64,000 nucleotides of DNA from Ensifer sp. LC163 (GTDB lineage: Bacteria > Pseudomonadota > Alphaproteobacteria > Rhizobiales > Rhizobiaceae). The notes beneath the pieces are model-generated. The model was not told the DNA's origin. It ran no database searches and saw nothing but the letters and a program-made list of their open reading frames with translations. The stretch is taken from positions 1 through 64,000 of the forward strand of contig NZ_MBSS01000018.1 of the NCBI RefSeq assembly GCF_001695855.1, given 5' to 3'. A program made the translations under genes and the position numbers. Each line of letters begins with the position of its first letter. Within the stretch, counting starts at the first letter, position 1. This document shows positions 47,178 through 64,000 of the stretch, one piece after another.

Positions 47178-47340
47178 TGCAAGATGGCAAGCTAAAAGCG
47201 TCATAGATCGACGCGTCGCAGCATGCAATCAGAAGTATGAGGTTGGCTACTTCGCGAAGGAGCATGATATCAAGGAAGGCGATACCCGAGGCATCATCAA
47301 ACAGCGTGGTATCGCCCCGCGCACGCAAATGCGCTTCGGT
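47178..47340 (+). pseudogene. DUF3606-like remnant
   Basis: After GGAGGTCTCTA an ATG opens a frame that stops after nine codons. The neighbouring frame then reads IDRRVAACNQKYEVGYFAKE followed by HDIKEGDTRGIIKQRG, which resembles the DUF3606 pattern (DRxRVxxxQxYEVxYxxxKxxxS). The start codon and body are out of frame, so the gene appears broken by a frameshift. Assignment from pattern memory only. Confidence 0.45.
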
Positions 47341-48379: not shown

Positions 48380-48438
48380 GCTTCATTTGCGCGTATCTTC
48401 GGCTCGGCCCCGGGAAAGCGGCGAGGAGCAGATTCCGT

Positions 48439-48969: not shown

Positions 48970-49249
48970 TCAGGGCGATTAGCCGACGGATAGCTGAAGT
49001 CGCCGCTTTTGGGATCGGTGACGCCAGTCTTTGATGTCCGCGATGAGGTCGGAAGCTGCCGCAACGCTGGTCAAAAGATATGGCTTCGGCGTCAAGATTG
49101 TCGCTCGAACGACATGGAGCACAAGCTTGCCTCCGGTGCGGCAAACTCGCACCGACGATCGTTGAGGGGAATAGCCCGGAAGGGTTTGGGATCGCACTTC
49201 ATGAGCAGCCGAGCGATTTCGCCCTGCCCGATGCTGGCCCGCATCAATT
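48970..49249. other. intergenic region, nothing recognised
   Basis: A 72-codon minus-strand frame (48979-49197) is open here and could be unread tail of the luxI-like pseudogene, but I see no family match. Confidence 0.3.
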
Positions 49250-49809
49250 GGGCGCTTTGCGACGATGGCTCATATCGGCAACAGGGCGTCGGGCGTTACA
49301 TCTGCCACGGATGCGTAGGTATGGGGGAACACCCTGCCCTGCCGAGAATTCGTTCGACGACGACGTCTGTTGCCGCGACGATCTCGGTGTAGCCATTGAC
49401 CAGGCACCACTCCATGATGCCGGCAAACATGACCCGGGTGATTTCGTGGAGTGCCCCCTTCCCCCCGCTCGCACACCGCCGTGTCCACGCAGAAGCGCGA
49501 GCTTTCGACCATCTGGTGCTTGCGAGTAAGAACATTGTCGCCCAAGTTTTCGGAAAACACGGTCGTGACCATCATCGGCCGGCTTGCCGGCGGCAGGCGC
49601 ACGCAGGCGACGACCCTGCCAGTGCCGTTCAAGGCGATGATGTAGGCGGGGCGCAGATCGTCGAAGGTATCGCGCTCGCGGCCATCGCGTATTGTCACGT
49701 CCCAGCCGAGGCGTTCGGAAAACACGCGGGCCCGCAGTCTGAACATCTGATCGAGATAAGCGTCCGACCTGTCACTGGCGCTGCCTGGCAATGCCGTAAT
49801 GCTGATCAC
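49250..49809 (-). pseudogene. LuxI/TraI-type acyl-homoserine-lactone synthase, frameshifted
   Basis: From a GTG at 49809 (GAGGAGGAAG upstream) the first frame reads DQMFRLRARVFSERLGWDV, RDTFDDLRPAYIIALNGTGR, VVACVRLPPASRP and MVESSRFCVDTAVCERG, the core of LuxI-family synthases. The key early residues R, F/W, D and the ESSRF motif are present. At a G-rich homopolymer (complement of 49452-49465) the match shifts frame to ALHEITRVMFAGIMEWCLVN, GYTEIVAATDVVVERILGR, then ends early. It lies divergent to repA2, the place traI has in Ti/Ri-type plasmids. Confidence 0.75.
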
Positions 49810-50140
49810 CCCTGCTTCCTCCTCGTTGCGGCGTTGAGGGGTGCGGCAGATCCATCGGCGGTTCAGGTCGCAGAAATGCAGGCGAGATTTCGTGACAAAG
49901 CGCTCGAAGCCGAGGCTCAAGGGAAGAGCCGAATCGGCCTTGCCAAGCCGAGTTCGAAGGTGAGTCGCCCCGATGCCGGTCTTTCGCGCAGGGATTGCCG
50001 CTCGTTGCTGCCGGTAGAAGAACGCTCGCCCCCGCAAATCTGCGAGCGGCCTCTGGTAGGGCTGATGCGCTCTAAGGCAAAGGATTCAAAGGACAATTTG
50101 CTATTTTGCGTGAGGATATCCGGCACCCTGTGCGAGCAAC
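49810..50140. other. intergenic region between luxI remnant and repA2
   Basis: About 330 bases without a supported gene; expected to hold divergent promoters. No lux-box palindrome was identified by eye. Confidence 0.35.
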
Positions 50141-50161: not shown

Positions 50162-50249
50162 TATTCCTTGCCAGCAGGGCAATTTGACCCCTAATAACGC
50201 TTGGGCCGTCTATCCGACCGAAAAACCGTTATTCGAGAGTTACCCTGAA

Positions 50250-51473
50250 ATGAACGCTAATTCGCCCTCCGCGGCGCCTGCGCAGCCAATGCAATTCGAG
50301 GATCTGATCCTGGAACAGGGCGACCTGATCTCGAAGAAGCTTCATCTCTTGAGCATGCAGCAGTTCCCCCCGAACGCCAAGAAGCTGCTACGCCAGTTCT
50401 CGCTAAATGAAGTCGCGCAGTTTTTGGGTGTGTCGCAGAGCACCCTGAAAAAGCTTCACCTTGAAGGCAAGGGGCCCCTTCCCCAGACGTCGACGTCGGG
50501 AAGGCGTTCCTATAGCGCCGAGCAGATGGTGGAACTCCGCCAATATCTCGACCAGCATGGTCGCTCGGAGGCACGCAACTACGTGCCGCAACGGCGGGTC
50601 GGCGAAAAACTTCAAATCATTGCAGTCGTCAACTTCAAGGGCGGTTCGGGCAAGACGACGACGGCTGCCCACCTGGCGCAGTACATGGCCCTGACCGGCC
50701 ACCGGGTGCTGGCCGTCGACCTCGACCCGCAGGCCTCTCTCTCCTCGCTTCACGGCTTCCAGCCTGAGCTCGACATGACGCCGTCGCTTTACGAGGCGAT
50801 CCGGTACGACGAACAGCGTCGGCCGATTTCCGAGATCATCTTGCCGACGAATTTCCCGGGGCTCGACATCATCCCCGCGAACCTCGAACTGCAGGAATTC
50901 GAGTACGACACGCCGCTTGCGATGTCGAACAGGAGTTCGAATGAGGGCAAGACCTTCTTCACGCGCATCTCTCGCGCGCTTGCCGAAGTGGATGACCGAT
51001 ACGACGTCGTCGTGATCGACTGCCCTCCCCAGCTAGGGTATCTGACGATCACGGCGCTGACCGCAGCCACGAGCGTTCTCATTACAATTCATCCGCAGAT
51101 GCTCGATGTTATGTCGATGGGGCAATTCCTCCTGATGCTCGGCGGCATCTTGAAGCCGATCCGCGATGCGGGTGCCGAGGTGAACCTGGAATGGTATCGC
51201 TATCTGATCACCCGGTATGAGCCGACAGACGGACCGCAGGCGCAGATGGTCGGCTTCATGCAGACCCTGTTCCACCAGTTCGTGCTGAAGAACCAGATGC
51301 TGAAGTCAACAGCGGTGTCGGACGCCGGGATCACGAAGCAGACGCTTTATGAAGTCGACAAGAGCCAGATGACGCGCTCGACCTATGAGCGCGCCATGGA
51401 CGCCTTCAACGCTGTCAATGCCGAAATCACCGACCTGGTGCACGCGTCCTGGGGACGCAAGGTCGCCGGCTGA
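50250..51473 (+). CDS. repA: second plasmid partition ATPase RepA (ParA family)
   Basis: RepA of 407 residues from ATG 50250 (GAGAG upstream; the frame is open to TTG 50184). It has an N-terminal helix-turn-helix (SLNEVAQFLGVSQSTLKKLH, SYSAEQMVELRQYL) and a ParA domain with canonical NFKGGSGKTTTAAHLAQ, VLAVDLDPQASLSSLHG and VVIDCPPQLGY. It is clearly divergent from the RepA at 38644 (different N-terminus, KGGSGKTT instead of KGGSAKTT), so the two should be separate partition specificities. It is followed by repB but not by repC. Confidence 0.92.
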   Translation: MNANSPSAAPAQPMQFEDLILEQGDLISKKLHLLSMQQFPPNAKKLLRQFSLNEVAQFLGVSQSTLKKLHLEGKGPLPQTSTSGRRSYSAEQMVELRQYLDQHGRSEARNYVPQRRVGEKLQIIAVVNFKGGSGKTTTAAHLAQYMALTGHRVLAVDLDPQASLSSLHGFQPELDMTPSLYEAIRYDEQRRPISEIILPTNFPGLDIIPANLELQEFEYDTPLAMSNRSSNEGKTFFTRISRALAEVDDRYDVVVIDCPPQLGYLTITALTAATSVLITIHPQMLDVMSMGQFLLMLGGILKPIRDAGAEVNLEWYRYLITRYEPTDGPQAQMVGFMQTLFHQFVLKNQMLKSTAVSDAGITKQTLYEVDKSQMTRSTYERAMDAFNAVNAEITDLVHASWGRKVAG

Positions 51474-51494
51474 CGATCGCCGCGGTATGGGATG

Positions 51495-51508
51495 ACCGCA
51501 AATGCGGT
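51495..51508. other. candidate partition site in the second repA-repB gap
   Basis: ACCGCAAATGCGGT is a dyad (ACCGCA/TGCGGT, AA centre) in the 56-base gap between repA2 and repB2. It is at the place the parS-like site has in the first cassette, but its sequence is unrelated, as expected if RepB2 has another specificity. Confidence 0.5.
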
Positions 51509-51529
51509 ACTGACGAATGGAGTAACGAG

Positions 51530-52510
51530 ATGGCGAGAAAGAACCTACTGGCAGGCCTGGTCGACGCAGCCGATATCCCGCAGGGAGACATCGCGCCCGC
51601 CTATCCGATGCGCGGTGCATCGAAGAGCATGGTTCGTTCGCTCGATGAACTCTCCCGACAGGCCGACAAGTTTCTCGAGGGTGAGGCGGTCGTTGAACTC
51701 GATCCGGGATCGATCGAGCGATCCTTCGTGGCCGACCGCCTGGAGGATGACCGAGACGAATTCGAGGCTCTCAAGCACGCGATCGCTGAACGAGGCCAGG
51801 ATACGCCGATCCTGGTGCGCCCTCACCCGTCGGTTTCTGGTCGCTATCAGGTGGTGTTCGGACATCGCCGTGCTCGGGCCGCTCGCGAACTCGGCCGCAA
51901 GGTCAAGGCCGTCGTCAAGGCGCTGGATGATCGCACGCACGTCATCGCCCAGGGGCAGGAGAATTCCGCGCGTGCCAATCTCTCCTTCATCGAGCGGGCG
52001 AGCTTTGCCCATAGCCTGGAGGCGCTTGGATATGACCGCTCGGTGATCTCTGCATCGCTTGCTGCCGACAAGACCGCGATCTCGAAGATGATGACCGTGA
52101 CCGAACGGATTTCGACTGCGGTCATCGAGAAGATAGGCCCTGCCCCGTCAACCGGACGCGATCGTTGGCTTGAACTCTCGCTCCTTGCCGGCAAGGCCGA
52201 CAACGCCGAACAGATCGGTGAAGTCCTCGGCCAGGCTTGGTTTGGCTCGCTCGGCAGCGACGAGCGTTTCAATGCGCTCTTCAACGCGCTTGCGACGTCG
52301 AAGAAGCCCGTCAGAAAGGCGGTGCCTCAGGTCAAGGATCGCTGGCAGGCCGAAGATAAAGCTGTGCAAGCTCAGTATTCGAACTCCGGCAAGGCATTCG
52401 CGCTTTCAATGAAATCGAAGAATGCCGGACAGTTCGGAAAATACCTCGCAGACAACCTCGATCGGCTTTACGCCGAGTTCCTGTCAGCGAAGGATCGAAA
52501 AGAAGACTGA
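51530..52510 (+). CDS. repB: second plasmid partition DNA-binding protein RepB (ParB family)
   Basis: RepB of 326 residues with the standard opening MARKNLLAGLVDA. ParB features are ELDPGSIERSFVADRL, DTPILVRPHPSVSGRYQVVF, GHRRARAARELGRKVKAVV and a helix-turn-helix near DRSVISASLAADKTAISKMM. It appears intact. GAGTAACGAG precedes the ATG. No repC follows within 300 bases; the next gene is an unrelated LysR regulator on the other strand. Confidence 0.92.
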   Translation: MARKNLLAGLVDAADIPQGDIAPAYPMRGASKSMVRSLDELSRQADKFLEGEAVVELDPGSIERSFVADRLEDDRDEFEALKHAIAERGQDTPILVRPHPSVSGRYQVVFGHRRARAARELGRKVKAVVKALDDRTHVIAQGQENSARANLSFIERASFAHSLEALGYDRSVISASLAADKTAISKMMTVTERISTAVIEKIGPAPSTGRDRWLELSLLAGKADNAEQIGEVLGQAWFGSLGSDERFNALFNALATSKKPVRKAVPQVKDRWQAEDKAVQAQYSNSGKAFALSMKSKNAGQFGKYLADNLDRLYAEFLSAKDRKED

Positions 52511-52801
52511 ACGCGCAGTTGCGAGCGCAGACCGGCAACGCGCGAGGAAGGCGTCATGATTTTGTGAGGCCGTTTGGTGTGGAGTTGCCGGCCGGCAATT
52601 GCAGAAAATTACGATGAAAAATCAATATATTGCTCGCATTTTGGAATCAAGCCGAATCGCGTCATAGGTGAATTCGGGCCAGCCGTGCTGCGTCCAGTTC
52701 CATGTCATGAGTTATTGAATTCTTTTCTATAACTGTAAGCGGTGCATTGACGCCGTCTGGCGACAGCGGGGGATTGACAACGTATTCGGCGGGTATTGGA
52801 G
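52511..52801. other. region after repB2 where repC would be expected
   Basis: About 290 bases. It contains a perfect palindrome TTGCCGGCCGGCAA (52585-52598) and AT-rich DNA but no start of repC and no clear antisense-RNA promoter/terminator pair like that at 41011-41098. Confidence 0.45.
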
Positions 52802-53737
52802 TTATTTCGGGGTTAGCCGCCTGCTGACGGCAATCGCCCGAGCGAGCATTTCTGCGGCCCGCGAGGGCTTGTTGCGCGGATAGGCAATGTGAAATGTGTC
52901 CTCGAAGGTCATTCTTTCCGGGGCAAGCAGCCGCAGTCGGCCGAGGCGGACCCATTCGTCGGCGTAGTGATCGGGCAGGAAACCGATATAGGCGCCGGAG
53001 AGCAGGAGCAACAGCGTTCCTTCCATATGGGGGGTGGCTGCCGCCCAATTGAAGTTCACCCCGCAGATCGTCTCGTTCAGCATGTAGGTGCGACCGGCGA
53101 AGGATTGCGTTTCGAGAAGCGCGTCCGTGAGTTCCGCATCGGGGCGGGGGAAGAGCGGGTGTCCCTCGGCGCAGTAGAGTTTCTGCACCTCGGCAAAGAC
53201 CGGTTGACTGCGGAAATGCGGCATGACGCTGCCGACCGACGGCATGAGCACGATCTGGTAGGATCCGTTCAGAAGCCCCTGGTGCAGCACCTGAGGGGCG
53301 GCGACGTCGATTTCCAGATGCACGCGCGGCGCCTCGGCGTGAAAGGCGGCGAGCGCACCCGGGAGGTTCAGGTCGCGATTGGTGATCATCGCATCGACGG
53401 TGCCGAAGGTGAGGCTGCCCATGAGCTCGCCTTGAGCCTCGCCGACGCGGCTTTGGAACTTCTCCAACGAACCGAGGAGTTCCAGCGTGGCCTCATAGAC
53501 GAGCCGTCCCTCATCCGTCAGCAGGAAGCCGCTACGGCCGCGGCTGCACAGGCGCAGACCCAGGCGATCCTCCAGATGGCGCATATGGGTGGAGATCGTC
53601 GCCTGCGTCATGCCGAGCGCGGCCTGGGCGGCGGAGAAGCCGCCACACTGAACGACGGAGGCGAAAACGCGCAGCAGTCGAAGCTCGGCATCGCCGAGCG
53701 ACAGATTGAGGACGCGGTGGCGGATCTTGTTGATCAT
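52802..53737 (-). CDS. LysR-family transcriptional regulator
   Basis: Regulator of 311 residues. The helix-turn-helix is LRLLRVFASVVQCGGFSAAQ with AALGMTQATISTHMRHLEDR, followed by an effector-binding domain with LCSRGRSGFLLTDEGRLVYE. It is divergent from the ureohydrolase gene with 91 bases between starts, the usual arrangement for a LysR activator of the facing operon. The gap holds AT-rich DNA but I could not fix a T-N11-A box. Confidence 0.86.
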   Translation of the reverse strand: MINKIRHRVLNLSLGDAELRLLRVFASVVQCGGFSAAQAALGMTQATISTHMRHLEDRLGLRLCSRGRSGFLLTDEGRLVYEATLELLGSLEKFQSRVGEAQGELMGSLTFGTVDAMITNRDLNLPGALAAFHAEAPRVHLEIDVAAPQVLHQGLLNGSYQIVLMPSVGSVMPHFRSQPVFAEVQKLYCAEGHPLFPRPDAELTDALLETQSFAGRTYMLNETICGVNFNWAAATPHMEGTLLLLLSGAYIGFLPDHYADEWVRLGRLRLLAPERMTFEDTFHIAYPRNKPSRAAEMLARAIAVSRRLTPK

Positions 53738-53828
53738 GCATTGATTAAGTCACAACTAAACATCCAATCATAGATATTTTTATGTGTATCTGCCTTCTGC
53801 ACACTCCCTCCATCTGTGGAGGACAGAC

Positions 53829-54806
53829 ATGGCCAGCAATTCTTATGAGTCCGGACGTTTGAACCTGCCGTTCGTCGGCATCTGCACCTTCGGCAAATAT
53901 CCCTATCAGCCGGACTGGGACGCGATCGACGCGGACGTTGCCATTCTCGGAGCGCCGTTCGACTGCGGCACGCAATGGCGGGCGGGAACGCGCTTCGGGC
54001 CGCGCGCCATTCGCGAAGCCTCGACGCTGTTTTCCTTCGGCCACGGCGGCGCCTACGATCATGAGGACGACGTCACCTATCTGCCCAGCGGAGAGGTTTC
54101 GATCGTCGATATCGGCGATGCCGACATCGTTCATACCGACACGATGAAGAGCCATGCCAATATCGAATTCGGCGTGCGCAAGATCCTTGCCGCCGGTGCG
54201 CTGCCGGTGGTGCTGGGTGGCGATCATTCCGTCAACATCCCCTGCGTCAACGCCTTTGCCGAGGACTGTGCCCGTAACGGACCGATCCACATCGTCCAGA
54301 TCGACGCGCATCTCGATTTCGTCGACGAGCGTCACGGCGTGCGCTACGGCCATGGCAACCCGATGCGCCGCGCAGCGGAAAAGCCCTATGTCAGCGGCCT
54401 GTCGCAGCTCGGCATCCGCAACGTCTCCTCCACGGCGAAGGAGGGCTATGAGGATGCCCGCAAGATGGGCTCCGACATTCTGTCGGTACGGCAGATCCGG
54501 GCACTCGGCACGGATGCGGTCGTCGAGCGCGTGCCGGCCGGGGCGCGCTACTACGTCACCATCGACATCGACGGTTTCGACCCGTCGATCGCGCCGGGCA
54601 CCGGCACGCCGTCGCACGGCGGCTTCATCTACTACGAGGTGCTGGAGATCCTGGCGGCGCTGACCAAGCGCGGCACGGTCGTCGGCATCGACCTGGTCGA
54701 GGTGGCGCCCGACTACGACCACACCGGCGGCACCTCCATTCTGGCGGCACAGGTGCTGATGAACCTGATCGGTCGCGTCATGCATGACAGAGCAACGCAG
54801 CCCTGA
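53829..54806 (+). CDS. ureohydrolase (agmatinase/guanidinobutyrase family)
   Basis: Manganese-type ureohydrolase of 325 residues that releases urea from a guanidino compound. ATG 53829 follows GGAGGACAG. Metal ligands are all present: H133 in GGDHSV, D159-H161-D163 in DAHLD, and D246/D248 in DIDGFDP. The fold resembles SpeB/GbuA rather than arginase. Candidates are agmatine, 4-guanidinobutyrate, 3-guanidinopropionate or guanidine itself. First gene of an operon with an aldehyde dehydrogenase, a permease and a GMC oxidoreductase, which favours a larger guanidino acid as substrate. Confidence 0.85.
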   Translation: MASNSYESGRLNLPFVGICTFGKYPYQPDWDAIDADVAILGAPFDCGTQWRAGTRFGPRAIREASTLFSFGHGGAYDHEDDVTYLPSGEVSIVDIGDADIVHTDTMKSHANIEFGVRKILAAGALPVVLGGDHSVNIPCVNAFAEDCARNGPIHIVQIDAHLDFVDERHGVRYGHGNPMRRAAEKPYVSGLSQLGIRNVSSTAKEGYEDARKMGSDILSVRQIRALGTDAVVERVPAGARYYVTIDIDGFDPSIAPGTGTPSHGGFIYYEVLEILAALTKRGTVVGIDLVEVAPDYDHTGGTSILAAQVLMNLIGRVMHDRATQP

Positions 54807-54895
54807 TCGAAAAACCAGGGGAGGGCGGTGCGGCACTGCCGACATCGCAAAAAACCGGTGCGCGTGGAGCGCCCGGCTGATGAGGAGGAAGAGAC

Positions 54896-56404
54896 ATGGA
54901 CGATAGCGTCCGCAACTATCTGGAACAGTATGGCGTCAGCGACGCGACGCGCCGGTTCCTGGCCAAACCGCAGACGATGTTCATCGGTGGAGCCTGGGTC
55001 GACAGTAGCGACGGCGCGACTTTCGACGTCTTCGAGCCCTCCACTGGGGGCCAGATAACCCGAGTTCCCTCGGGCACGACGGACGATCTCGACCGCGCCG
55101 TCGCAGCCGCGCGCCGGCAGTTCGACGGTGGGGAGTGGCGCCGCCTCAAGCCACTCGAGCGAGAGCGCCTCCTGCACCGCCTCGCCGATCTTATCGAAAT
55201 GCACGCTGCAGAATTGGCGGAAATCGAAGCCATCGACATGGGCAAGTCGGTGACGTTTGCCCGCGAGGTAGACGTTCAGGGGACGATCGATACCTTCCGC
55301 TATTTCGCCGGCTGGGCTTCCAAGCTGCACGGGCGCACCGTCGAGCCGTCCATTCCCGGCAACTACCTGGCCTATACGCGCAAGGAGCCTCTTGGTGTCG
55401 TTGCGGCCATCGTTCCCTGGAACTTTCCGCTCCAGACCATGGCCTGGAAGCTCGCGGCCGCGCTTGCGGTCGGCTGCACGACGGTCGTCAAGCCGGCTGA
55501 ACTGACGTCGCTTTCGACCCTCCGCTTCGCGGAGTTGGTACAGGAGGCCGGAATCCCGGACGGCGTGGTCAATGTCGTGACCGGCCGGGGTAGTGTGGTC
55601 GGTGCGGCCATGTCGTCCCACCCGGGGATCGACAAGGTTACGTTTACCGGTTCTACGCCGGTCGGGCAGGAGGTCGGCCGGACCGCGGTCGGCGAGCTCA
55701 AGCACGTCACGCTGGAACTGGGAGGGAAATCACCCGTTCTGGTGCTCGAGGATGCCGACCTGACGAGCGCTGCCCGCGCCGTGGCCAACGGCGTGTTCTT
55801 CAACTCCGGGCAGGTCTGCGATGCCGGTACGCGTGTCTATGTCCAGCGATCGGTTCACGATGCCTTCCTCGACGAACTGGTCGCCGTCACCCGCACGCTG
55901 AAGATCGCGCCGGGCCTCGACCGCGATTGCTACATCGGACCCCTGGTGTCGGCGCAGCAGAAGAAGGTCGTTTCTGCGTATATCGAGGCTGGCCGCCGCG
56001 AAGGCGCCGAACTGATCCATGGGGGCGGCAGCCCCGATCGGCCGGGCCATTTCATCGAGCCCGCCATCTTCGCCCACTGCAAACCCGAAATGAGCATCGT
56101 GCGCGAGGAAATCTTCGGGCCTGTGCTGGCCACCGCCGCCTTCGGCAATCTGGACGACGCGGTCGCGCTGGCGAACGACTCCGCTTTCGGCCTCGCCGCC
56201 GCCATCTATTCGAACGACCTGTCGCGTGTGCATGGGCTTATTCCGCGCCTGCAGGCCGGCTCGATCTACGTCAACGCCCACAGCACCATCGATCCCTCCA
56301 TGCCGTTCGGCGGCTTCAAGGCGTCGGGCTTCGGCAAGGATCTGGGGCCGGAGCAGCTGGACTACCTGATGGAGACGAAGGCTGTCTGGATCACGCTGCC
56401 ATGA
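54896..56404 (+). CDS. NAD(P)-dependent aldehyde dehydrogenase
   Basis: Enzyme of 502 residues, ALDH superfamily. ATG 54896 follows GAGGAGGAAGAG. Motifs are PWNFPLQTMAWKLAAALAVG, FTGSTPVGQEV, the base in ELGGKSP, and the catalytic cysteine in FFNSGQVCDAGTR, then EEIFGPVLA and MPFGGFKASGFGKDLG. It resembles gamma-aminobutyraldehyde/betaine aldehyde dehydrogenases. With the ureohydrolase upstream it may oxidise a guanidino aldehyde such as 4-guanidinobutyraldehyde. Substrate is inference. Confidence 0.85.
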   Translation: MDDSVRNYLEQYGVSDATRRFLAKPQTMFIGGAWVDSSDGATFDVFEPSTGGQITRVPSGTTDDLDRAVAAARRQFDGGEWRRLKPLERERLLHRLADLIEMHAAELAEIEAIDMGKSVTFAREVDVQGTIDTFRYFAGWASKLHGRTVEPSIPGNYLAYTRKEPLGVVAAIVPWNFPLQTMAWKLAAALAVGCTTVVKPAELTSLSTLRFAELVQEAGIPDGVVNVVTGRGSVVGAAMSSHPGIDKVTFTGSTPVGQEVGRTAVGELKHVTLELGGKSPVLVLEDADLTSAARAVANGVFFNSGQVCDAGTRVYVQRSVHDAFLDELVAVTRTLKIAPGLDRDCYIGPLVSAQQKKVVSAYIEAGRREGAELIHGGGSPDRPGHFIEPAIFAHCKPEMSIVREEIFGPVLATAAFGNLDDAVALANDSAFGLAAAIYSNDLSRVHGLIPRLQAGSIYVNAHSTIDPSMPFGGFKASGFGKDLGPEQLDYLMETKAVWITLP

Positions 56405-56526
56405 GGCCCTGACCCATCGCCCGGCCGCCGCCCATGGGTGGCCCGGTTCCAAAGATCGGCGGCTGATGGAGCCGCAATTTCTCGCGGAAAGACGCCAGAA
56501 GGCGCGGTGCGACAAGGGGAACGACC

Positions 56527-56697
56527 ATGGAAGACAACGATATCGCCTGGCAAAACGAGCTGGCGCGCCGCGCCCGCATCTATGAGGATATTGAGGCGGG
56601 GCACTGCTTCGAGGGCACGATGACCGCGCTCGACTATACCGGCATGACTGTACTGACGGTCGTGCTCGTCGCCGCCTTCTGGATCTGGGGGGCCTGA
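56527..56697 (+). CDS. 56-residue single-pass membrane protein beside the NCS1 permease
   Basis: ATG 56527 is preceded by GGGGAACGACC. The product starts polar and acidic (MEDNDIAWQNELARRARIYE, DIEAGHCFEG) and ends with one membrane helix (YTGMTVLTVVLVAAFWIWGA). The stop is separated by one base from the permease start (ATG 56699), so the two are translationally coupled. Position and topology suggest an accessory subunit of the permease. No family recognised. Confidence 0.65.
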   Translation: MEDNDIAWQNELARRARIYEDIEAGHCFEGTMTALDYTGMTVLTVVLVAAFWIWGA

Positions 56698-56698
56698 G

Positions 56699-58159
56699 AT
56701 GACCGATCATGTTGCACACGAGCTTGTCGCCGCCGAAGTCGAGCGGGAGGACGCCAGCCGCAATCGCGCCGCCGCCGAACGCGGTGACGCGCCGCTGCTG
56801 CCGTCCGAGCGGCTCTGGGGCTTCTGGGAATTCACCTACGCCAATTCGGCGCTCGCCATCGCCACCTGGGCCTTCCTGATCGGTGGCGCCATCGGCCTTT
56901 TCGTCGGGCCGAAGGAGGGCATCGCCGCGATCATTATCGGCAACATCGTTGGCGTGGTTTTGACGGCGCTCGCCACCACCACCATGTCCGGCCGCTACGG
57001 CGTCGAGCAGTTCATCGCGCTGCGCAGCCAGTTCGGCTACAACGGCAGCCGCGTCGTCTATGTGCTGGCCGTGGTGCTGCTCACCATGGGCTGGCTTGCG
57101 GTACTCGCCATGATGTTCGGCCGCTCGATCGACGGCCTGATGGCGCTCAGCGCCGGGGAGGCCGCCAACCCGACCGGCGTCAAGATGATCATCGCCGCCG
57201 TCGGCGCCATCCTCGTCACCTGGTTCATCGTCGCCAAGGGGCCGACCTCGATCAAGTTCTTCAACATGGTCGTCTCGCCCGCGCTGGTGATCCTGATGGT
57301 GGTGATGCTCTATCTCATCCTCAGTCACCATTCCCTAGGCGAACTTCTGGCGATGCCGGCGCTCTCGCCTCCCTTCGAGGACAAGACGCTGAACTTCATC
57401 GTCGCGGTCGAAGTGAACCTTGCCGCCGGCTTCTCCTGGTGGCCCTATATCGGCAACCTGGCGCGGCTCACCAAGAACGAGCGCACCGCGTTCTGGCCGA
57501 ACGTCCTCGGCATCTTCGGCGCCGCCGCGCTCGGCGAGATCGTCGGTCTCCTGGCGGCCGTCGCGCTCGGCGAGAGCGATCCGACCATCTGGATGACCAG
57601 GATCGCCGGTCCCGTCATCGGCATCATCGCGCTGCTCTTCGTCGCCTTCGCCAACATGACCTCAATGGCGAACATCCTCTACACTTCCATCGTCGGCCTG
57701 AGGCAGGTCGGGACGGCCTCGGTGCGCGCCATTTCCTGGGGCACGGTCCTCTTCCTGTTCTGCCTCATCCCGCTCGGCCTCGTGATCTTCTATCCGCAGA
57801 TGTATGACGGCTTCTTCATCTTCCTCGTCTGGACCTCGGCGCTCAATTCCGCGCTCGCCGGCATCGGCATCGTCGATTACTTCTTCCTGCGCGGCCAGAA
57901 GCTCGACATGCGCAGCCTGCACGGGCCGCAGGAAAACGGCCCCTACCGCTTCTGGGCGGGGTTCAACCCCATCGGGCTCTTCGCGCTCGCCGTCGGCTGC
58001 ATCGTCTATGTCGTCGTCTTCAATCCGCAGACGCTCGCGAGCCTGCCGGCCTTCAAATACCTCACCGCTTCGCTTCCCGCCTGCCTTGCGGCCGGCGCCG
58101 TCCACTATGTCCTGACCCGGCTCTTCGCCCGCGGGCGCGGCTGGGGCCTCTATCCGTAA
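56699..58159 (+). CDS. NCS1-family nucleobase/hydantoin/purine-type permease
   Basis: Membrane transporter of 486 residues in the nucleobase:cation symporter-1 family. The N-terminal RLWGFWEFTYANSALAIATW and SRYGVEQF-like SGRYGVEQFIALRSQFGYNG are family marks; LAAGFSWWPYIGNLARLTKN and the many hydrophobic helices (about 12) fit. The likely cargo is the compound degraded by the operon rather than a nucleobase. Starts immediately after the small membrane protein gene. Confidence 0.83.
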   Translation: MTDHVAHELVAAEVEREDASRNRAAAERGDAPLLPSERLWGFWEFTYANSALAIATWAFLIGGAIGLFVGPKEGIAAIIIGNIVGVVLTALATTTMSGRYGVEQFIALRSQFGYNGSRVVYVLAVVLLTMGWLAVLAMMFGRSIDGLMALSAGEAANPTGVKMIIAAVGAILVTWFIVAKGPTSIKFFNMVVSPALVILMVVMLYLILSHHSLGELLAMPALSPPFEDKTLNFIVAVEVNLAAGFSWWPYIGNLARLTKNERTAFWPNVLGIFGAAALGEIVGLLAAVALGESDPTIWMTRIAGPVIGIIALLFVAFANMTSMANILYTSIVGLRQVGTASVRAISWGTVLFLFCLIPLGLVIFYPQMYDGFFIFLVWTSALNSALAGIGIVDYFFLRGQKLDMRSLHGPQENGPYRFWAGFNPIGLFALAVGCIVYVVVFNPQTLASLPAFKYLTASLPACLAAGAVHYVLTRLFARGRGWGLYP

Positions 58160-58177
58160 CCTTCCGGAACCACCGCC

Positions 58178-59863
58178 ATGACCGATACCTACGACTACAT
58201 CATCATCGGCGCCGGATCGGCCGGCTGCGTGCTCGCTAACCGGCTTTCGGAAGACCCGGCCACCAAGGTTCTGGTCCTCGAATACGGCGGCAGCGACAAG
58301 TCGATCTTCATCCAGATGCCGACGGCGCTGTCCATTCCGATGAACGGCACGAAATACAACTGGAAATACATGACGCTGCCGGAACCCGGCCTCGACGGCC
58401 GCCGGGTCCATTGCCCGCGCGGAAAAGTCATCGGTGGCTCCTCCTCGATCAACGGGCTCGTCTACATGCGCGGCCACGCCCGAGATTTCGACGAGTGGGA
58501 GGAATTGGGCGCGCGCGGCTGGCGATACGCCAATTGCCTGCCATATTTCCAGCGCGCGGAAAGCTGGCAGGACGGGGGCGACGCCTATCGCGGCGGCGCC
58601 GGCCCGCTTGCCACCAATGCCGGCAACAGGATGCAGAACCCGCTCTACCGCGCCTTCGTCGATGCCGGCCGCGAGGCGGGCTACATCGCCACCGACGACC
58701 CGAACGGCCATCTGCAGGAAGGTTTCGGACCCATGCATATGACCGTGAAGGACGGCGTGCGCTGGTCGACGGCGAATGCCTACCTCAAGCCGGCGATGAA
58801 CCGGCCGAACCTCACCGTGATCACCCATGCCATGACGCGGCGCGTGCTGCTGCACGGAAAACGCGCTGTCGGCGTCGAATATGAACTGGGCGGCGAACGC
58901 ATCGTGGCGAAGGCGAGCCGCGAGGTGCTGATTTCCTCCGGCCCGATCGGCTCGCCGCACCTTCTGCAACGCTCCGGCATCGGCCCGGCGGCGGTGCTGC
59001 GTCAGGCGGGCGTTCCCGTTCTGCACGACCTGCCCGGTGTCGGTGAGAACCTGCAGGATCATTCCGAGGTCTATATCCAATATGCCTGCAAGGAGCCGAT
59101 CACGCTCAACGGCAAGATGGGACTGTTGAGCCGCGCCCTGATCGGCGCCGAATGGCTGCTATTCAAGAAGGGGCTTTCGGTCTCCAACCACTTTGAAAGC
59201 GGCGGCTTCATCCGTTCCGACGCCTCGCTTCAATGGCCGGATATCCAGTTCCATTTCCTGCCGGCAGCCATGCGTTACGACGGCAAGAAGCCGCTCGACG
59301 GCCATGGCTTCATGGTGCTGACCGGGCCGAACAAACCCAAGAGCCGCGGCCATGTCAGGCTTCGGTCGCCGGAAGCCCATGAGCAGCCCGATATCCTGTT
59401 CAACTACCTCGACCGCGAGGAGGATCGCGAAGGCTTCCGCCGCTGCCTGCGGCTGACCCGCGAAATCGTCGCCCAGCCGGCCTTCGACCGCTTCCGCGGC
59501 GAGGAGATCGCGCCGGGCGAAAATGTCCGCAGTGACGACGAGATCGACGCTTGGGTGCGCGAAACCATGGAAAGCACCTACCATCCCTGCGGCTCCTGCC
59601 GCATGGGCGAGGATGCCATGGCGGTGGTCGACAGCGATCTCAAGGTGCGCGGTCTCGAAGGGCTGCGGGTGATCGACAGTTCCGTCTTCCCCGCCGAACC
59701 GAACGCCAACCTCAATGCGCCGACCATCATGCTGGCCGAGCGCGCCTCCGACATCGTGCGCGGCAAGCCCTTGCTTGCCGCCTCGAATGCCGAGGTCGGC
59801 GTCGCGCCCGGCGTCGGCGTCACCCAGCGCAGCGGCACGCCGATGCGTGCGGTGCGGCACTAG
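58178..59863 (+). CDS. GMC-family FAD oxidoreductase (choline dehydrogenase-like)
   Basis: Flavoenzyme of 561 residues that oxidises an alcohol to an aldehyde. FAD binding is shown by [20 protein letters not shown]; the GMC signatures are [19 protein letters not shown] and [17 protein letters not shown]; the active-site histidine is in [12 protein letters not shown] and the second residue in [15 protein letters not shown]. It is most like BetA, but no betaine genes are near. Placed in an operon with an aldehyde dehydrogenase and a ureohydrolase it could provide the first of two oxidation steps. Confidence 0.86.
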
Positions 59864-59924
59864 GAGCAGGGGCATGCTGCGGGGCATAGGATATGTCGTC
59901 GCGCGCCGGGATCGCGACGATCCG

Positions 59925-59950
59925 GAAGAGCCCCACGATTGGGCTCTCTT
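59925..59950 (+). terminator. terminator-like hairpin after the GMC gene
   Basis: AGAGCCC (59927-59933) pairs with GGGCTCT (59941-59947) around a seven-base loop, with flanking GA/TC pairs. The T tract is weak (CTTCATC). It lies between convergent genes. Confidence 0.5.
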
Positions 59951-60022
59951 CATCGAAACGCTTCTCCGCCGGCTGAGGTCCCGCTTCGGCGAAAGGCCTC
60001 GCGCGGAAACGGCGGAGCGGCC

Positions 60023-61492
60023 TCACGGCTGCGAAAGCGCTTCGGCAAGACGGCCGAGATAGGGCTTCATCCGCTCGGCGGGCACACCGGCATAGCCGAG
60101 GATGAGCGCGCCCGGCCGTCGGGTCGCGATCGTATAGTCGGACAGTGGATAACATTGCAGCCCGGCGTCGAGCACGGCGCGATGCACTGCCCGGTCGCCG
60201 CGGCTGCCTTCCAGCCAGGCGAGCGCGTTGAGCCCGCTTTCGGAGCAATCGACGCGCGCAAGCCCGGCAAGCGCCGTCCGGCCTGCCTCCTGGAAAGCCT
60301 CGCGGCGTTCGGCATAGAGGCCGCGCATGCGCCGCAGATGGCTGGCGAAATGGCCGCCACCGATGAATTCGGCAAGGGCGAGCTGGGTTTCCACCGGCAC
60401 GCTGCGATGGATCAGGCCCGAAAGATTGCGGAAGGCGCCGACGAGCTGCGGCGGCAGCACGAGATAGCCGACGCGGATGCCCGGATAGAGCGCCTTGCTG
60501 AAGCTGCCCGCATAGATGATCCGGTCATGGCTGTCGACGGAGCGCATGGAGGGCAGCGGCGCGCCGTCGTAGCGGAATTCGCTGTCGTAATCGTCCTCGA
60601 TGATCCAGGCATCGTTCGCCCGCGCCCATTCGAGGAGGGCGAGCCGGCGCGGCAGCGAGAGCGTCACCCCGAGCGGGTGGTGGCGCGAGGGCATGACGAA
60701 GGCAAGCCGCGCGTCGGGATGGCGCGCCATGGCGCCCGCGACATCCATGCCGTCGGAATCGACATCCACGGGGCAAAGATGCAGCCCGAGCGTGCGGAAC
60801 AGGTTGCTTGTCGTGACGGGGCCAGGGTCCTCGAACCAGATGCCGTCGCCGGGATCGGCGAGCGCCAGGGCGGCGAGCGTGAAGGCGGCATGCCCGCCGG
60901 GCGTGATGACGATCTGTTCCGGATCGCAGGAGTCACGCCGGTGCAGGGCGAGATATTCGGCGATCCTCTGGCGCAGCACCAGTTCGCCCGCGACATCGCC
61001 GTAGCCCATGGTGGCCCTGCCGCTGCGCGTCACCGCATTCCAGCATTTGCGCCAGACGGCGAAGGGAAAGCGGTCGAGCGCCGGTTGGTTGGGCAGGAAG
61101 GGTTTTTGTTCCATCTGACCGATTTCGGCCGATACGCCGCGCGATAGGGCGCCGATCCGCGACAGGCGCGGCGACGCATCGCTCTCGCCCAGCGTGAAGT
61201 GCGGTTTCGGCAACTGGCGGGGCAGGGCTTGGGAAACGAAGGTGCCCGCGCCCTGCCGCGCCTCCAGGTAACCTTCCGCCTTCAGGTTCTCCAGGACCCG
61301 CACCAGCGTCTGGCGCGACAGGCCCAGCTCTTCCGCAAGGATGCGGCTTGCCGGTAGGCGCGCGCCGGCGCGCAGGTGCCCGCGCAGGATCGCCATGCGC
61401 AACTGGTCCTGCACCTGGCGGAATTTCGGCAGGGCCACCGCCGCGTCGAGGCGAAGGAAGGGCAGGATCGGGCCTTCGAGCTGCTTGGCCAA
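60023..61492 (-). CDS. MocR/GabR-type transcriptional regulator (GntR HTH + aminotransferase-like)
   Basis: Protein of 489 residues. TTG 61492 is chosen because GGAGG stands six bases ahead; a GTG at 61525 is the alternative. Residues 1-75 form a GntR winged helix (PASRILAEELGLSRQTLVRV, LENLKAEGYLEARQGAGTFV). The rest is a fold-type I aminotransferase domain that binds pyridoxal phosphate, with the lysine in YAGSFSKALYPGIRVGY and IEDDYDSEFRYDGAPLPS. MocR regulators often sense PLP adducts of amino compounds such as GABA or taurine. Divergent from the ABC transporter genes at 61716, its likely target. Confidence 0.86.
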   Translation of the reverse strand: MAKQLEGPILPFLRLDAAVALPKFRQVQDQLRMAILRGHLRAGARLPASRILAEELGLSRQTLVRVLENLKAEGYLEARQGAGTFVSQALPRQLPKPHFTLGESDASPRLSRIGALSRGVSAEIGQMEQKPFLPNQPALDRFPFAVWRKCWNAVTRSGRATMGYGDVAGELVLRQRIAEYLALHRRDSCDPEQIVITPGGHAAFTLAALALADPGDGIWFEDPGPVTTSNLFRTLGLHLCPVDVDSDGMDVAGAMARHPDARLAFVMPSRHHPLGVTLSLPRRLALLEWARANDAWIIEDDYDSEFRYDGAPLPSMRSVDSHDRIIYAGSFSKALYPGIRVGYLVLPPQLVGAFRNLSGLIHRSVPVETQLALAEFIGGGHFASHLRRMRGLYAERREAFQEAGRTALAGLARVDCSESGLNALAWLEGSRGDRAVHRAVLDAGLQCYPLSDYTIATRRPGALILGYAGVPAERMKPYLGRLAEALSQP

Positions 61493-61715
61493 GGTGTGCC
61501 TCCGAAAATTGGTACAGTCGAACACACAATAATGGACGTTTGATTGTTGTCCAATTGTTACATCCTCTCCTTACACGAAGACGCACCGATGCAGCCCCAA
61601 AGGACGCAGACAGGTGCAAGGGGAACCGGGCCGGGCGGCAAGGCCGACGACCGGATGCAAGGACCAGAACAGCCATCGCCCACGCGCCGTCGAGAACGGC
61701 CAACAGGAGGTATCC

Positions 61716-62834
61716 ATGAACCGCTTCGTATCCCGCGCGGCCAGCCGCGCGTTCGTCTCGACGCTTGCCCTCGTCGTCGCCCTGCCGGGCCTCGCGAGCG
61801 CGGAGCCGCCGCAGGATCTCGTGGATGCCGCCACGAAGGAAGCCATGCTGACGGTCATCGCGCTGCCGCATGACTGGTGCAACTACGGCGAGGTCATCGC
61901 CGGCTTCAAGGCCAAGTATCCGGGCATCGAGGTCAACGAGCTGAACCCGGACGCGGGCACGGCCGACGAGCTGGAGGCGATCCGCGCCAACAAAGGCAAT
62001 ACGGGTTCGCAGGCCCCAGACGTCGTCGATCTCGGCCTCGCCTTCGCCCCGGCTGCAGCCAAGGAAGGCCTGCTCCAGCCCTACAAGGTGGCGACCTGGG
62101 ACGAAATCCCTGACAACATCAAGGACGCGGCCGGCTATTGGTACGGCGACTATTACGGCGTCATGGCGTTCGGCGTGAACAAGGACCTGCTGGAGACCGC
62201 GCCGGCCGATTGGTCGGATCTCTCCAAGTCCGAATACTCCGGCGCCGTTGCGCTCACCGGCGATCCGCGCTCCTCGGCGCAGGCGATCCTGGCGCTGATG
62301 TCGGCCGGCATTTCGCGCGGTGCGACGCCCGGCGCGGACTCCGGCGCCAAGGGGCTGGAACTCTTCGCGGAGCTGAACAAGGCCGGCAATTTCGTGCCCG
62401 TGCTCGGCAAGGCCGGCACCATCGCGCAGGGCCAGACGCCGATCGTCGCCGCCTGGGACTACAACCTGCTTGCCTGGCGCGATGCGCTGAACGGCAATCC
62501 GCCGATGGAGGTCGTCGTGCCGGCAAGCGGCGTGGTGGCCGGCGTCTATGTGCAGGCGATCTCGGCCTATGCGCCGCATCCGAATGCCGCAAAGCTCTGG
62601 ATGGAATATCTCTATTCCGACGAGGGCCAGACCGGCTGGCTGAAGGGCTACTGCCATCCCGCACGCTTCAACGCGATGCTGAAGGCCGGGAAATTCCCGC
62701 AGGAGCTGCTCGACAGGCTGCCGCCGACCGAGGCCTATGAGAAGGCGATCTTCCCGACCGTCGAGGCGCTGGACGCCAACAAGACTGCCATCGTCGAAGG
62801 CTGGGACAAGGTGGTCGGCGCCAACGTCAAGTAA
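61716..62834 (+). CDS. ABC transporter substrate-binding protein (polyamine/iron type)
   Basis: Periplasmic protein of 372 residues. CAGGAGGTATCC precedes ATG 61716. The signal peptide ends at LASAEPP. ATKEAMLTVIALPHDWCNYG, VIAGFKAKYPGIEVNELNPD and PIVAAWDYNLLAWRDALNGN fit the extracellular family that serves putrescine/spermidine and Fe(III)-type importers. The ligand is unknown; the neighbouring MocR regulator suggests an amino compound. Confidence 0.78.
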   Translation: MNRFVSRAASRAFVSTLALVVALPGLASAEPPQDLVDAATKEAMLTVIALPHDWCNYGEVIAGFKAKYPGIEVNELNPDAGTADELEAIRANKGNTGSQAPDVVDLGLAFAPAAAKEGLLQPYKVATWDEIPDNIKDAAGYWYGDYYGVMAFGVNKDLLETAPADWSDLSKSEYSGAVALTGDPRSSAQAILALMSAGISRGATPGADSGAKGLELFAELNKAGNFVPVLGKAGTIAQGQTPIVAAWDYNLLAWRDALNGNPPMEVVVPASGVVAGVYVQAISAYAPHPNAAKLWMEYLYSDEGQTGWLKGYCHPARFNAMLKAGKFPQELLDRLPPTEAYEKAIFPTVEALDANKTAIVEGWDKVVGANVK

Positions 62835-62849
62835 GCCGCGCATCCGGTG

Positions 62850-62876
62850 CGGAGGCTCCCCTTGGCGGAGCCTCCG
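62850..62876 (+). terminator. stem-loop after the binding-protein gene
   Basis: CGGAGGCTCC (62850-62859) is perfectly complementary to GGAGCCTCCG (62867-62876) with a seven-base loop. Same position as the hairpins in the other importer operons of the window. Confidence 0.65.
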
Positions 62877-62903
62877 GCCGCAGCGCCTTCAGGGAACAAT
62901 CCG

Positions 62904-63788
62904 ATGACGACAAGCGCCGCATCCCTGCCGTCCGCCTTGCGGCCGCGGCAGGTTCTCAGCTGGTTCGGGGTCGCCCCTTTCTTCCTCTTCGCCCTTCTGT
63001 TCCTCATCCTGCCAACGCTCAACATCGTCGTTGGCGCCTTCCGCAATGCGGCGGGTGAGGCGACGCTGGAAAACCTCGGCAAGCTTCTTTCGCCCTCCAT
63101 CCGGTCGGCCTTCTGGATCTCCATCGAACTCAGCCTGCTGACGGCGGTGCTCGGCTGTCTCTTCGGCTTCCTCATCGCCGCCGCCATCACGCTCGGCGGC
63201 CTGCCGCGCCCGCTGCGCAACGCCATCCTCACCTTTTCCGGCGTCGCCTCCAATTTCGCCGGCGTGCCGCTCGCCTTTGCCTTCATCGCCACGCTCGGCC
63301 GCCTCGGCTTCGTGACGATGCTTTTGCGCCACTGGTTCGGCATCAATCTCTACGGTTCCGGCTTCAACATCGTCTCGTTTCTCGGCCTGGCGCTCACCTA
63401 TCTCTATTTCCAGATTCCGCTGATGGTGCTGATCATCACACCGGCGCTGGAAGGCCTGCGGCGTGAATGGCGCGAGGCGGCCGAAAGCTTGGGCGCCAGC
63501 GGTTTCCAGTATTGGCGTCTGGTGGCACTGCCGGTGCTGTGGCCCTCGCTGCTTGGCACGCTCGCGCTCTTGTTCGCCAATGCCTTCGGCGCCGTCGCCA
63601 CCGCCATCGCGCTCACCGGCTCGTCGCTCTCCATCGCGCCCATCGTGCTCTTTGCGCAAATCCGCGGCGACGTTCTGAACGATCCGCATCTCGGCTACGC
63701 CATCGCCTTTGCGATGATCGTGCTCACCGCCATCGCCAACGGCATCTACATCCTGCTGCGCATGCGCGCAGAACGGTGGGTCAAATGA
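62904..63788 (+). CDS. ABC transporter permease (PotB type)
   Basis: Permease of 294 residues. ATG 62904 is favoured by AGGGA upstream. About six membrane helices are visible; the EAA loop reads EAAESLGASGFQYWRLVALP. It overlaps the next permease by four bases (ATGA). Confidence 0.82.
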   Translation: MTTSAASLPSALRPRQVLSWFGVAPFFLFALLFLILPTLNIVVGAFRNAAGEATLENLGKLLSPSIRSAFWISIELSLLTAVLGCLFGFLIAAAITLGGLPRPLRNAILTFSGVASNFAGVPLAFAFIATLGRLGFVTMLLRHWFGINLYGSGFNIVSFLGLALTYLYFQIPLMVLIITPALEGLRREWREAAESLGASGFQYWRLVALPVLWPSLLGTLALLFANAFGAVATAIALTGSSLSIAPIVLFAQIRGDVLNDPHLGYAIAFAMIVLTAIANGIYILLRMRAERWVK

Positions 63789-64000
63789 CGGGAAAACGCC
63801 TCTGGTCCTGGCTCGCCGTTGTGCTCGGCGGGCTCTATTTCCTGCTGCCGCTCGCCGGCATGGTTGATTTCTCGCTGCGCATGCAGCGCGACGGCTACAG
63901 TTTCGGGGCCTATCGCATCGTGCTGACCGACGCGCAGTTCCAGCAGACCTTCGGCTATTCGGTGGGGCTGGCGCTGCTCACCATCGTGCTCGGCATCCTG
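63785..64000 (+). CDS. ABC transporter permease (PotC type), partial
   Basis: Starts at ATG 63785 overlapping the previous stop and continues past the window end. The 72 visible residues include the first membrane helix (LAVVLGGLYFLLPLAGMVDF) and SFGAYRIVLTDAQFQQTFGY, typical of the second permease of polyamine-type importers. An ATPase gene is expected beyond the window. Confidence 0.8.
   Translation, partial: MTGKRLWSWLAVVLGGLYFLLPLAGMVDFSLRMQRDGYSFGAYRIVLTDAQFQQTFGYSVGLALLTIVLGIL

What the first reader, a model, noticed from the sequence alone, without database searches (positions are those of the whole stretch)
53829..59863. Possible undescribed guanidino-alcohol catabolic operon
Ureohydrolase, aldehyde dehydrogenase, small membrane protein, NCS1 permease and GMC alcohol oxidase are in one operon under a LysR regulator. 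Read as a pathway: uptake, alcohol to aldehyde (GMC), aldehyde to acid (ALDH), then urea release (ureohydrolase), for example from 4-guanidinobutanol through 4-guanidinobutyrate to GABA. Known arginine-derived routes reach 4-guanidinobutyraldehyde by other enzymes, so a GMC entry step and NCS1 uptake would be new. The ureohydrolase ligands are all intact.
Basis: inference. Interest (0 to 1): 0.7.

Follow-up and report, generated by a model that had tools for sequence, protein, structure and literature searches.

The report
Conserved guanidino-compound breakdown operon
A rhizobial plasmid-type region carries a real, conserved set of genes that probably takes up a small guanidine-bearing alcohol, oxidises it to an acid and then splits off urea; the exact substrate is unknown and no step has been tested in the laboratory.

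Summary
The gene content is confirmed at the stated coordinates: divergent LysR, then ureohydrolase (URH1), ALDH, 56-aa membrane protein, NCS1 permease and GMC oxidoreductase in one tight run. It is conserved: 13 of 16 genomes of the genus carry it (one split over contigs), and ALDH, GMC and URH1 recur together in two Betaproteobacteria and an Acidiphilium with a different NCS1 permease (about 17% identical). The middle position is modular: some operons carry ALDH, others two SDR dehydrogenases plus a PuuE-like amidohydrolase, with at least two swaps on a quick tree. A candidate promoter/operator block is shared by both types. The GMC is a clade beside choline dehydrogenase, with fixed differences near active-site residues. 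URH1 differs from the genome's SpeB and GpuA/GbuA-like enzymes and belongs to a large, mainly alphaproteobacterial clade with almost invariant loops. I read the operon as uptake plus oxidation of a short guanidino alcohol to a guanidino acid that URH1 cleaves. New variant of a known kind; substrate unproven.

The parts
52802..53737 (-). LysR-family regulator, divergent from the operon
   Evidence: PF03466/PF00126; same place in 12 of the 13 operons of the genus, the 13th (G015) starting at a contig end
53738..53828 (.). LysR/URH intergenic stretch with a candidate promoter/operator block
   Evidence: ACATNNAATCATAGATNNTTTT found with 0-4 mismatches (16 exact) in 23 of 24 upstream regions, in both ALDH and SDR operon types; the exception (L045, first copy) has no LysR directly upstream; L074 gave no region
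53829..54806 (+). ureohydrolase URH1
   Evidence: PF00491 273 bits; TIGR01230 182.9 against cut-off 174.3; metal-ligand motifs present
54896..56404 (+). aldehyde dehydrogenase
   Evidence: PF00171 570 bits; best NCBIfam models PaDhStyD and BADH, those shown all below cut-off
56527..56697 (+). 56-aa protein, soluble N-terminal part and one C-terminal TM segment
   Evidence: no Pfam or NCBIfam match at E 0.001; orthologues directly before NCS1 in other loci
56699..58159 (+). NCS1-family permease, nearest named relatives in the MetT-like branch
   Evidence: PF02133 93 bits; 39.4% identical to the NCS1 of the KHPS1 metformin plasmid
58178..59863 (+). GMC-family FAD alcohol dehydrogenase, clade beside choline dehydrogenase
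   Evidence: TIGR01810 759.6 against cut-off 732.1; URH-linked clade SH-aLRT 97

Best explanation
A LysR-controlled catabolic operon for a short omega-guanidino alcohol (C2 to C4; I favour C2-C3, such as 2-guanidinoethanol). The NCS1 permease, helped by the small membrane protein, imports the cationic substrate. The GMC flavoprotein oxidises the alcohol to an aldehyde and the ALDH oxidises that to a guanidino acid. URH1 hydrolyses the acid to an amino acid plus urea. In many relatives two SDR enzymes and a PuuE-like amidohydrolase stand where the ALDH stands and deliver to the same URH1. Shown: gene content, conservation, module swaps, separate clades of GMC and URH1. Inferred: every reaction, the substrate, the order of steps.
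For: Unit conserved in 13 of 16 genomes of the genus and in 13 of 13 plasmid records with a close NCS1 (partly the same strains). ALDH, GMC and URH1 recur together in Azoarcus (URH1 68.8%; order LysR-ALDH-NCS1-GMC-porin-URH) and Acidiphilium, and with URH1 about 3.4 kb away in Paraburkholderia; these carry an NCS1 only about 17% like the window's. GMC is a clade apart from BetA (SH-aLRT 97, 28 rows, quick tree) with fixed differences beside likely catalytic residues. A 35% NCS1 sits beside a 69% GbuA-like ureohydrolase and an ALDH in Thioclava, and a 39-41% one beside a ureohydrolase gene and HypAB on a metformin plasmid. Where a second ureohydrolase lies in the SDR-containing clusters of other Alphaproteobacteria, its nearest solved relative is the guanidino-acid enzyme GpuA (53-67% identity) in all 14 distinct cases compared (PDA is seen in 9 of these 14 clusters). 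Different delivery routes (GMC+ALDH, SDR/PDA, ABC transporters) meet one URH1 with almost invariant loops, as expected if URH1 acts on a hub guanidino acid.
Against: No biochemical or growth data. URH1 passes the agmatinase model TIGR01230 and its nearest solved relative is a D. radiodurans agmatinase at 38%. URH1 has Ser69 where GbuA has the carboxylate-capping Arg72. GMC passes the choline-dehydrogenase model. Many URH1 genes stand without GMC, NCS1 or ALDH, so the enzyme is not dedicated to this operon. Guanidino alcohols are rarely reported: a search for five of their names found 18 papers, none with a bacterial pathway in its listed title or abstract start. The chain length rests on indirect hints only.
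Confidence: 0.5

Rival explanations
1. Same substrates, opposite order: URH1 first turns a guanidino alcohol (or other guanidino compound) into an amino alcohol plus urea, and GMC and ALDH then oxidise the amino alcohol to an amino acid, much as TaoA/TaoB oxidise TRIS.
For: GMC belongs beside an amino-alcohol dehydrogenase family; TRIS is oxidised by a choline-dehydrogenase-like GMC and an ALDH (PMC10848231, passages); URH1 lacks the carboxylate-capping Arg of GbuA.
Against: GMC differs from choline dehydrogenase near active-site residues; guanidino-acid hydrolases accompany the related NCS1 in Thioclava and the SDR clusters.
Confidence: 0.18
2. URH1 is an agmatinase, as annotated; the operon handles agmatine or putrescine-type compounds, and GMC serves another amine-derived alcohol.
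For: TIGR01230 above cut-off; best solved match called agmatinase; annotated records name it speB; a class III aminotransferase family lies beside URH1 in L066 and, with an ALDH, within about 10 kb in L071 and L073 (only the L066 aminotransferase and the L073 ALDH were scanned).
Against: The genome already has a SpeB-type agmatinase (286 bits to 4dz4); agmatine and putrescine offer no alcohol for a GMC; subfamily PRK02190 cut-off not met (204.7 against 302).
Confidence: 0.15
3. The GMC/ALDH pair is a choline-to-betaine module that merely lies beside a ureohydrolase.
For: GMC exceeds the TIGR01810 cut-off and is 60-64% identical to matches in Vibrio and Pseudoalteromonas plasmid records; one of these, L141, is a true betIBA operon.
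Against: The genome has another BetA-like gene (55%) beside a BetB-like one (flags one TAG in that match); the URH-linked GMC is its own clade with fixed differences; the URH link holds across classes.
Confidence: 0.07

Closest known systems
Pseudomonas guanidino-acid hydrolases GbuA and GpuA, and human GDAH
   Same: Arginase-fold ureohydrolases that release urea from guanidino acids; a Thioclava cluster pairs a related NCS1 and an ALDH with a 69% GbuA homologue
   Different: URH1 is only 34-35% identical, lacks the GbuA Arg72 cap and has other loops; no GMC is annotated in the Thioclava stretch shown
MetT/MefH metformin cluster (PMC13390362, PMC9800807, PMC11399263; passages read)
   Same: An NCS1 permease (39-41%) beside a ureohydrolase gene
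   Different: MefH is a nickel heteromer with HypA/HypB nearby; here there is one ureohydrolase, no HypAB in the operon, and extra alcohol and aldehyde oxidation genes
TRIS pathway TaoA/TaoB (PMC10848231; passages read)
   Same: Choline-dehydrogenase-like GMC plus ALDH plus transporter for an amino alcohol
   Different: No ureohydrolase named in the passages on its clusters; TaoA was not compared by sequence here
betIBA choline dehydrogenase operon
   Same: GMC is a clade beside BetA; ALDH scores among BADH-like models
   Different: No betI in place; residues near the active site differ; linked to a ureohydrolase and NCS1
S. meliloti arginine transamination network, SpeB2 (PMC7268258; passages read)
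   Different: The aldehyde there comes from arginine or agmatine, not an alcohol; which gene here matches SpeB2 was not established

Membership tests
Ureohydrolase (arginase) superfamily | Arginase family model and complete metal-ligand motifs | tested here: met
   PF00491 273 bits; GGDHS, DAHLD, DIDGFD present
Agmatinase | NCBIfam agmatinase models above cut-off | tested here: inconclusive
   TIGR01230 182.9 over 174.3 (met); PRK02190 204.7 under 302 (not met)
Agmatinase | Urea release from agmatine | not testable with these tools
   needs an enzyme assay
GbuA/GDAH guanidino-acid hydrolase | Arg72 (GbuA) capping the neighbouring active site | tested here: not met
   Ser69 in the window, Ser or Ala in the other URH1 rows; but the human G105 variant without this Arg still works on guanidino acids (PMC9772407, passages)
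Choline dehydrogenase BetA | TIGR01810 equivalog cut-off | tested here: met
   759.6 against 732.1
Choline dehydrogenase BetA | Residues near the active site shared with BetA-like proteins and the solved 9lq0 | tested here: not met
   19 columns without a shared residue between 28 URH-linked and 7 BetA-like rows; of seven held against 9lq0, six differ there too (296, 379, 381, 382, 467, 507) and 342 does not
Choline dehydrogenase BetA | betI/betB operon context | tested here: not met
   LysR-URH-ALDH-small-NCS1-GMC instead
NCS1 transporter, MetT subfamily | NCS1 model match and closeness to MetT | tested here: inconclusive
   PF02133 93 bits, TIGR00800 below cut-off (92.7 against 353.1); 39.4% to the KHPS1 NCS1 gene, taken here as MetT from its plasmid context; MetT residue numbers could not be mapped
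NCS1 transporter, MetT subfamily | Transport of a guanidine compound | not testable with these tools
   needs uptake assay
Allantoinase PuuE (for the alternative module's 'polysaccharide deacetylase', not in the window) | TIGR03212 cut-off | tested here: not met
   72 against 424.6 bits; nearest solved 3rxz, 198 bits, named only a polysaccharide deacetylase; PuuE 68 bits

The most novel reading that the evidence does not exclude
The operon family embodies two interchangeable chemical routes to the same guanidino acid. In one, GMC plus ALDH oxidise a guanidino alcohol in open-chain form. In the other, the guanidino aldehyde closes to a cyclic hemiaminal, an SDR oxidises it to a cyclic acylguanidine (for example glycocyamidine or dihydroisocytosine), and the PuuE-like enzyme opens that ring. 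Both feed URH1, a so far uncharacterised guanidino-acid hydrolase clade that is annotated as agmatinase. Nucleobase-type transporters (NCS1, BMP, NMT1-like ABC) would fit pyrimidine-like cyclic guanidines.
Probability: 0.2. Interest if true: 0.7.

Novelty: new variant of a known kind. Interest (0 to 1): 0.48.

Why it matters
If true, bacteria have a dedicated route for guanidino alcohols, a compound class for which the listings showed no bacterial pathway, and a large ureohydrolase clade now named agmatinase would be re-annotated. It would also show that a choline-dehydrogenase-like subfamily and NCS1 permeases have been adapted to natural guanidine compounds, which gives a background for the metformin transporter MetT. 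The ALDH versus SDR/SDR/amidohydrolase exchange is a directly testable prediction about pathway chemistry.

Tried and rejected
Guanidine riboswitch or other known RNA: no Rfam match at the gathering threshold in 52500-64000. Nickel dependence: no HypA/HypB gene seen in the operon, unlike the KHPS1 plasmid. I first expected loss of a Trp pair, recalled from E. coli BetA, to separate the GMC from choline dehydrogenase; the betIBA-borne Pseudoalteromonas BetA lacks it too, so I dropped the idea. Mapping MetT's F47/W117/W231/T260 onto the window failed: only F47 fitted the KHPS1 protein as numbered, and the window has Ile there. A paper search for choline-oxidase pocket residues found nothing; searches for gbuA neighbours and guanidinoacetase gave listings that I did not follow. 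A survey over 297 genomes of the order, drawn evenly, was uninformative for the NCS1 gene: only the window's own genome has a close one and two others match at 32-34%, while URH1 of at least 74% is in 50 of 297 and GMC of at least 61% in 9 of 297, own genome counted. The first-copy upstream region of L045 does not share the regulatory block. Terminator and promoter scans gave no signal above chance.
Full report
What is there. A LysR gene (52802-53737, minus) faces a run of five plus-strand genes: ureohydrolase 53829-54806, aldehyde dehydrogenase 54896-56404, a 56-residue one-TM protein 56527-56697, an NCS1 permease 56699-58159 and a GMC flavoprotein 58178-59863. Gaps in the run are 89, 122, 1 and 18 bp. 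The ureohydrolase keeps its metal-ligand motifs. Terminator and promoter scans are no better than chance, and Rfam finds nothing. Co-transcription is therefore likely from anatomy, not measured.

Conservation in the genus. Of 16 genomes, 12 hold URH1 at 93% identity or more and one more (G015) holds it as two contig-end fragments at 96%. The same 13 hold the NCS1 gene at 90% or more; G008, G010 and G012 hold neither. Fetched stretches of 12 of these genomes, with the window as the 13th, show LysR - URH1 - middle module - small protein - NCS1 - GMC, then in most a MocR gene facing back. Gaps in that map: G015 begins at a contig end, so LysR and URH1 are not seen; the small gene was not picked up in L149 and L150, NCS1 not in L147 (one search finds it there), SDR2 not in L145 and L152, and MocR not in L147 and L150. 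Plasmid records agree: the 13 records with NCS1 at 78% or more are the same 13 that hold GMC at 83% or more, and all 13 hold URH1 close by.

The middle module is exchangeable. In the genus, 6 of 16 genomes carry the ALDH. The other 7 of the 13 operons carry SDR dehydrogenase genes (two, where both were picked up) and a 'polysaccharide deacetylase' (PDA) in its place, and there is no ALDH match at E 1e-180 anywhere in those 7 genomes. PDA at E 1e-60 is in 8 of 16 genomes: those 7 plus G015, which has it on another contig beside the second URH1 fragment. So the two modules exclude each other within an operon but can coexist in a genome; Shinella kummerowiae (L045) and record L127 also carry both. 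On the GMC tree the module label changes 3 times, with at least 2 changes forced by starred branches. This is a quick tree with SH-aLRT support only.

Beyond the genus. In 86 loci around URH1 relatives (75% identity or more; 80 of them the best of at least 585 found in one capped scan, 6 from plasmids), the NCS1 orthologue is in 12 and a GMC of 70% or more in 16. Azoarcus has LysR-ALDH-NCS1-GMC-porin-URH1 (URH1 68.8%, ALDH 74%, GMC 72%), Acidiphilium has LysR-URH1-ALDH-NCS1-GMC, and Paraburkholderia has ALDH-NCS1-GMC about 3.4 kb from URH1. Their NCS1 permeases are 69-77% like each other and about 17% like the window's, so two distant NCS1 types go with this enzyme core. The order differs too, which makes functional linkage a better explanation than inertia. 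Many of the remaining URH1 genes stand beside none of the reference genes, or beside other transporters; this counts against URH1 being dedicated to the operon.

Regulation. Upstream of URH1 the block ACATNNAATCATAGATNNTTTT (18 fixed letters) occurs exactly in 16 of 24 regions and with 1 to 4 mismatches in 7 more, in both module types; the one region without it is a URH1 copy with no LysR directly upstream. Rows of one genus are near-copies; the matches in Gemmobacter, Acidiphilium, Mesorhizobium and the Rhodobacterales carry 1 to 4 mismatches. It is a candidate LysR site or promoter.

URH1. Its best solved relative is D. radiodurans agmatinase at 38%, then GbuA, PAH and GpuA at 34-35%. The genome also holds a SpeB-type enzyme (C12, 286 bits to 4dz4) and a GpuA/GbuA-like one (C24, 281 and 266 bits), so URH1 is an additional type. 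The loops near the active site are almost invariant from Azoarcus to SAR116. At the place of GbuA Arg72, said in PMC9772407 (passages read) to cap the neighbouring active site so that it could contact the carboxylate, URH1 has Ser69. The human enzyme works on guanidino acids with or without that Arg, so this lowers but does not exclude a guanidino-acid substrate.

GMC. It passes the choline dehydrogenase model (759.6 against 732.1), yet the 28 URH-linked GMC rows form a clade (SH-aLRT 97) beside 7 BetA-like rows. Nineteen columns share no residue between the two sets. Of seven that I held against the solved choline dehydrogenase 9lq0, six (296, 379, 381, 382, 467, 507) differ there too and 342 does not. 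Position 296 precedes Glu297, and 467 lies two residues before His469; these correspond, by recall, to the Glu312 and His466 region of choline oxidase. The genome has another BetA-like gene at 55% beside a BetB-like one. I conclude that the substrate has probably moved away from choline, without knowing to what.

NCS1. MetT, an NCS1 permease, was shown in 2026 to import metformin (PMC13390362; abstract and passages read). A 39-41% identical NCS1 gene lies beside HypA, HypB and an agmatinase-family gene on the KHPS1 plasmid, whose shared region A is described in PMC9800807 (passages). In Thioclava a 35% NCS1 with its own small protein stands beside a ureohydrolase 69% identical to GbuA and an ALDH. 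So NCS1 permeases related to this one go with guanidine-compound hydrolases in at least these cases; other related ones (L124-L126) stand beside no annotated ureohydrolase. The MetT homologues tested in that paper did not restore growth on metformin, so the window's permease should not be called a metformin transporter.

Clue on chain length. In SDR-containing clusters of other Alphaproteobacteria a second ureohydrolase lies within about 7 kb of URH1. All 14 distinct ones compared are closest to GpuA, the 3-guanidinopropionase, at 53-67% identity; PDA is seen in 9 of these 14 clusters. The choline-dehydrogenase ancestry of GMC also suggests a short chain. I therefore favour C2-C3 over C4, weakly.

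Mechanism. Best reading: uptake by NCS1, GMC to the aldehyde, ALDH to the guanidino acid, URH1 to amino acid plus urea. The SDR/SDR/PDA module would do the ALDH's job by another chemistry; my boldest reading is oxidation of a cyclic hemiaminal and ring opening by the PuuE-like PDA, which matches the solved 3rxz and, weakly, PuuE allantoinase. All reactions are inference.

Literature. Searches for ureohydrolase gene clusters with ALDH or choline dehydrogenase (25 of 133 papers listed), for guanidino alcohols (all 18 listed), for agmatinase with polysaccharide deacetylase or SDR (1 paper) and for guanidino compounds with GMC (none) did not show this operon in their listings. The library is open-access only. 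The listing includes a paper on leonurine whose text holds 4-guanidino-1-butanol (seen as a listing only), so plant sources of such alcohols are conceivable. TRIS degradation (PMC10848231, passages) shows that a choline-dehydrogenase-like GMC plus ALDH can serve a non-choline amino alcohol.

Verdict. Best filed as a new variant of guanidino-compound catabolism with a testable substrate question.

Noticed in passing
window 50184-52510 and 41205-41726: A repA-like ORF (my reading) and a RepB (TIGR03454, 349 bits) have no repC after them; a RepC match (PF03428, 226.8 bits) lies about 8.5 kb upstream in the same contig, so there seems to be a second, repC-less partition pair beside the operon.
   Followed up: partly
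window 56527-56697; L123 5786-5965, L124 355-585, L125 5810-6019, L126 5674-5973: A small protein with one C-terminal TM segment precedes NCS1 permeases of several branches, also where no ureohydrolase is annotated nearby; no Pfam or NCBIfam family for the window protein. Possibly an undescribed accessory subunit; none was found within 700 bp before the KHPS1, Azoarcus or Paraburkholderia NCS1 genes.
   Followed up: partly
window 60023-64000: A MocR-like regulator (seen in 11 of 13 maps of the genus) and ABC transporter genes (SBP_bac_6) lie next to the operon, also in Aminobacter and record L127 (named Roseateles); in L127 and L153 a TIM-barrel protein and an inositol monophosphatase-like gene follow. 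In the Rhodobacterales versions only one MocR match of 55% (L052) was seen.
   Followed up: partly
L057, L066, L071, L073, L082 near URH1: URH1 relatives lie near gene clusters whose L082 members match diaminopropionate ammonia-lyase, an M24 peptidase-like protein and an EutA-like protein, and in L066, L071 and L073 near one aminotransferase family (L066 member scanned: class III type); may point to other guanidino-amino-acid pathways.
   Followed up: no
L042, L044, L056, L069, L088: ABC transporter genes of BMP (nucleoside-like) type, judged by clustering and by the L056 binding protein (PF02608), lie before PDA and/or URH1 with no SDR gene recognised in between.
   Followed up: no
window 49270-50037 (-): An ORF that I read, from recall, as an acyl-homoserine-lactone synthase; its C-terminal end looks frame-changed. 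The stretch 47229-49269 has no ORF of 200 aa or more.
   Followed up: no
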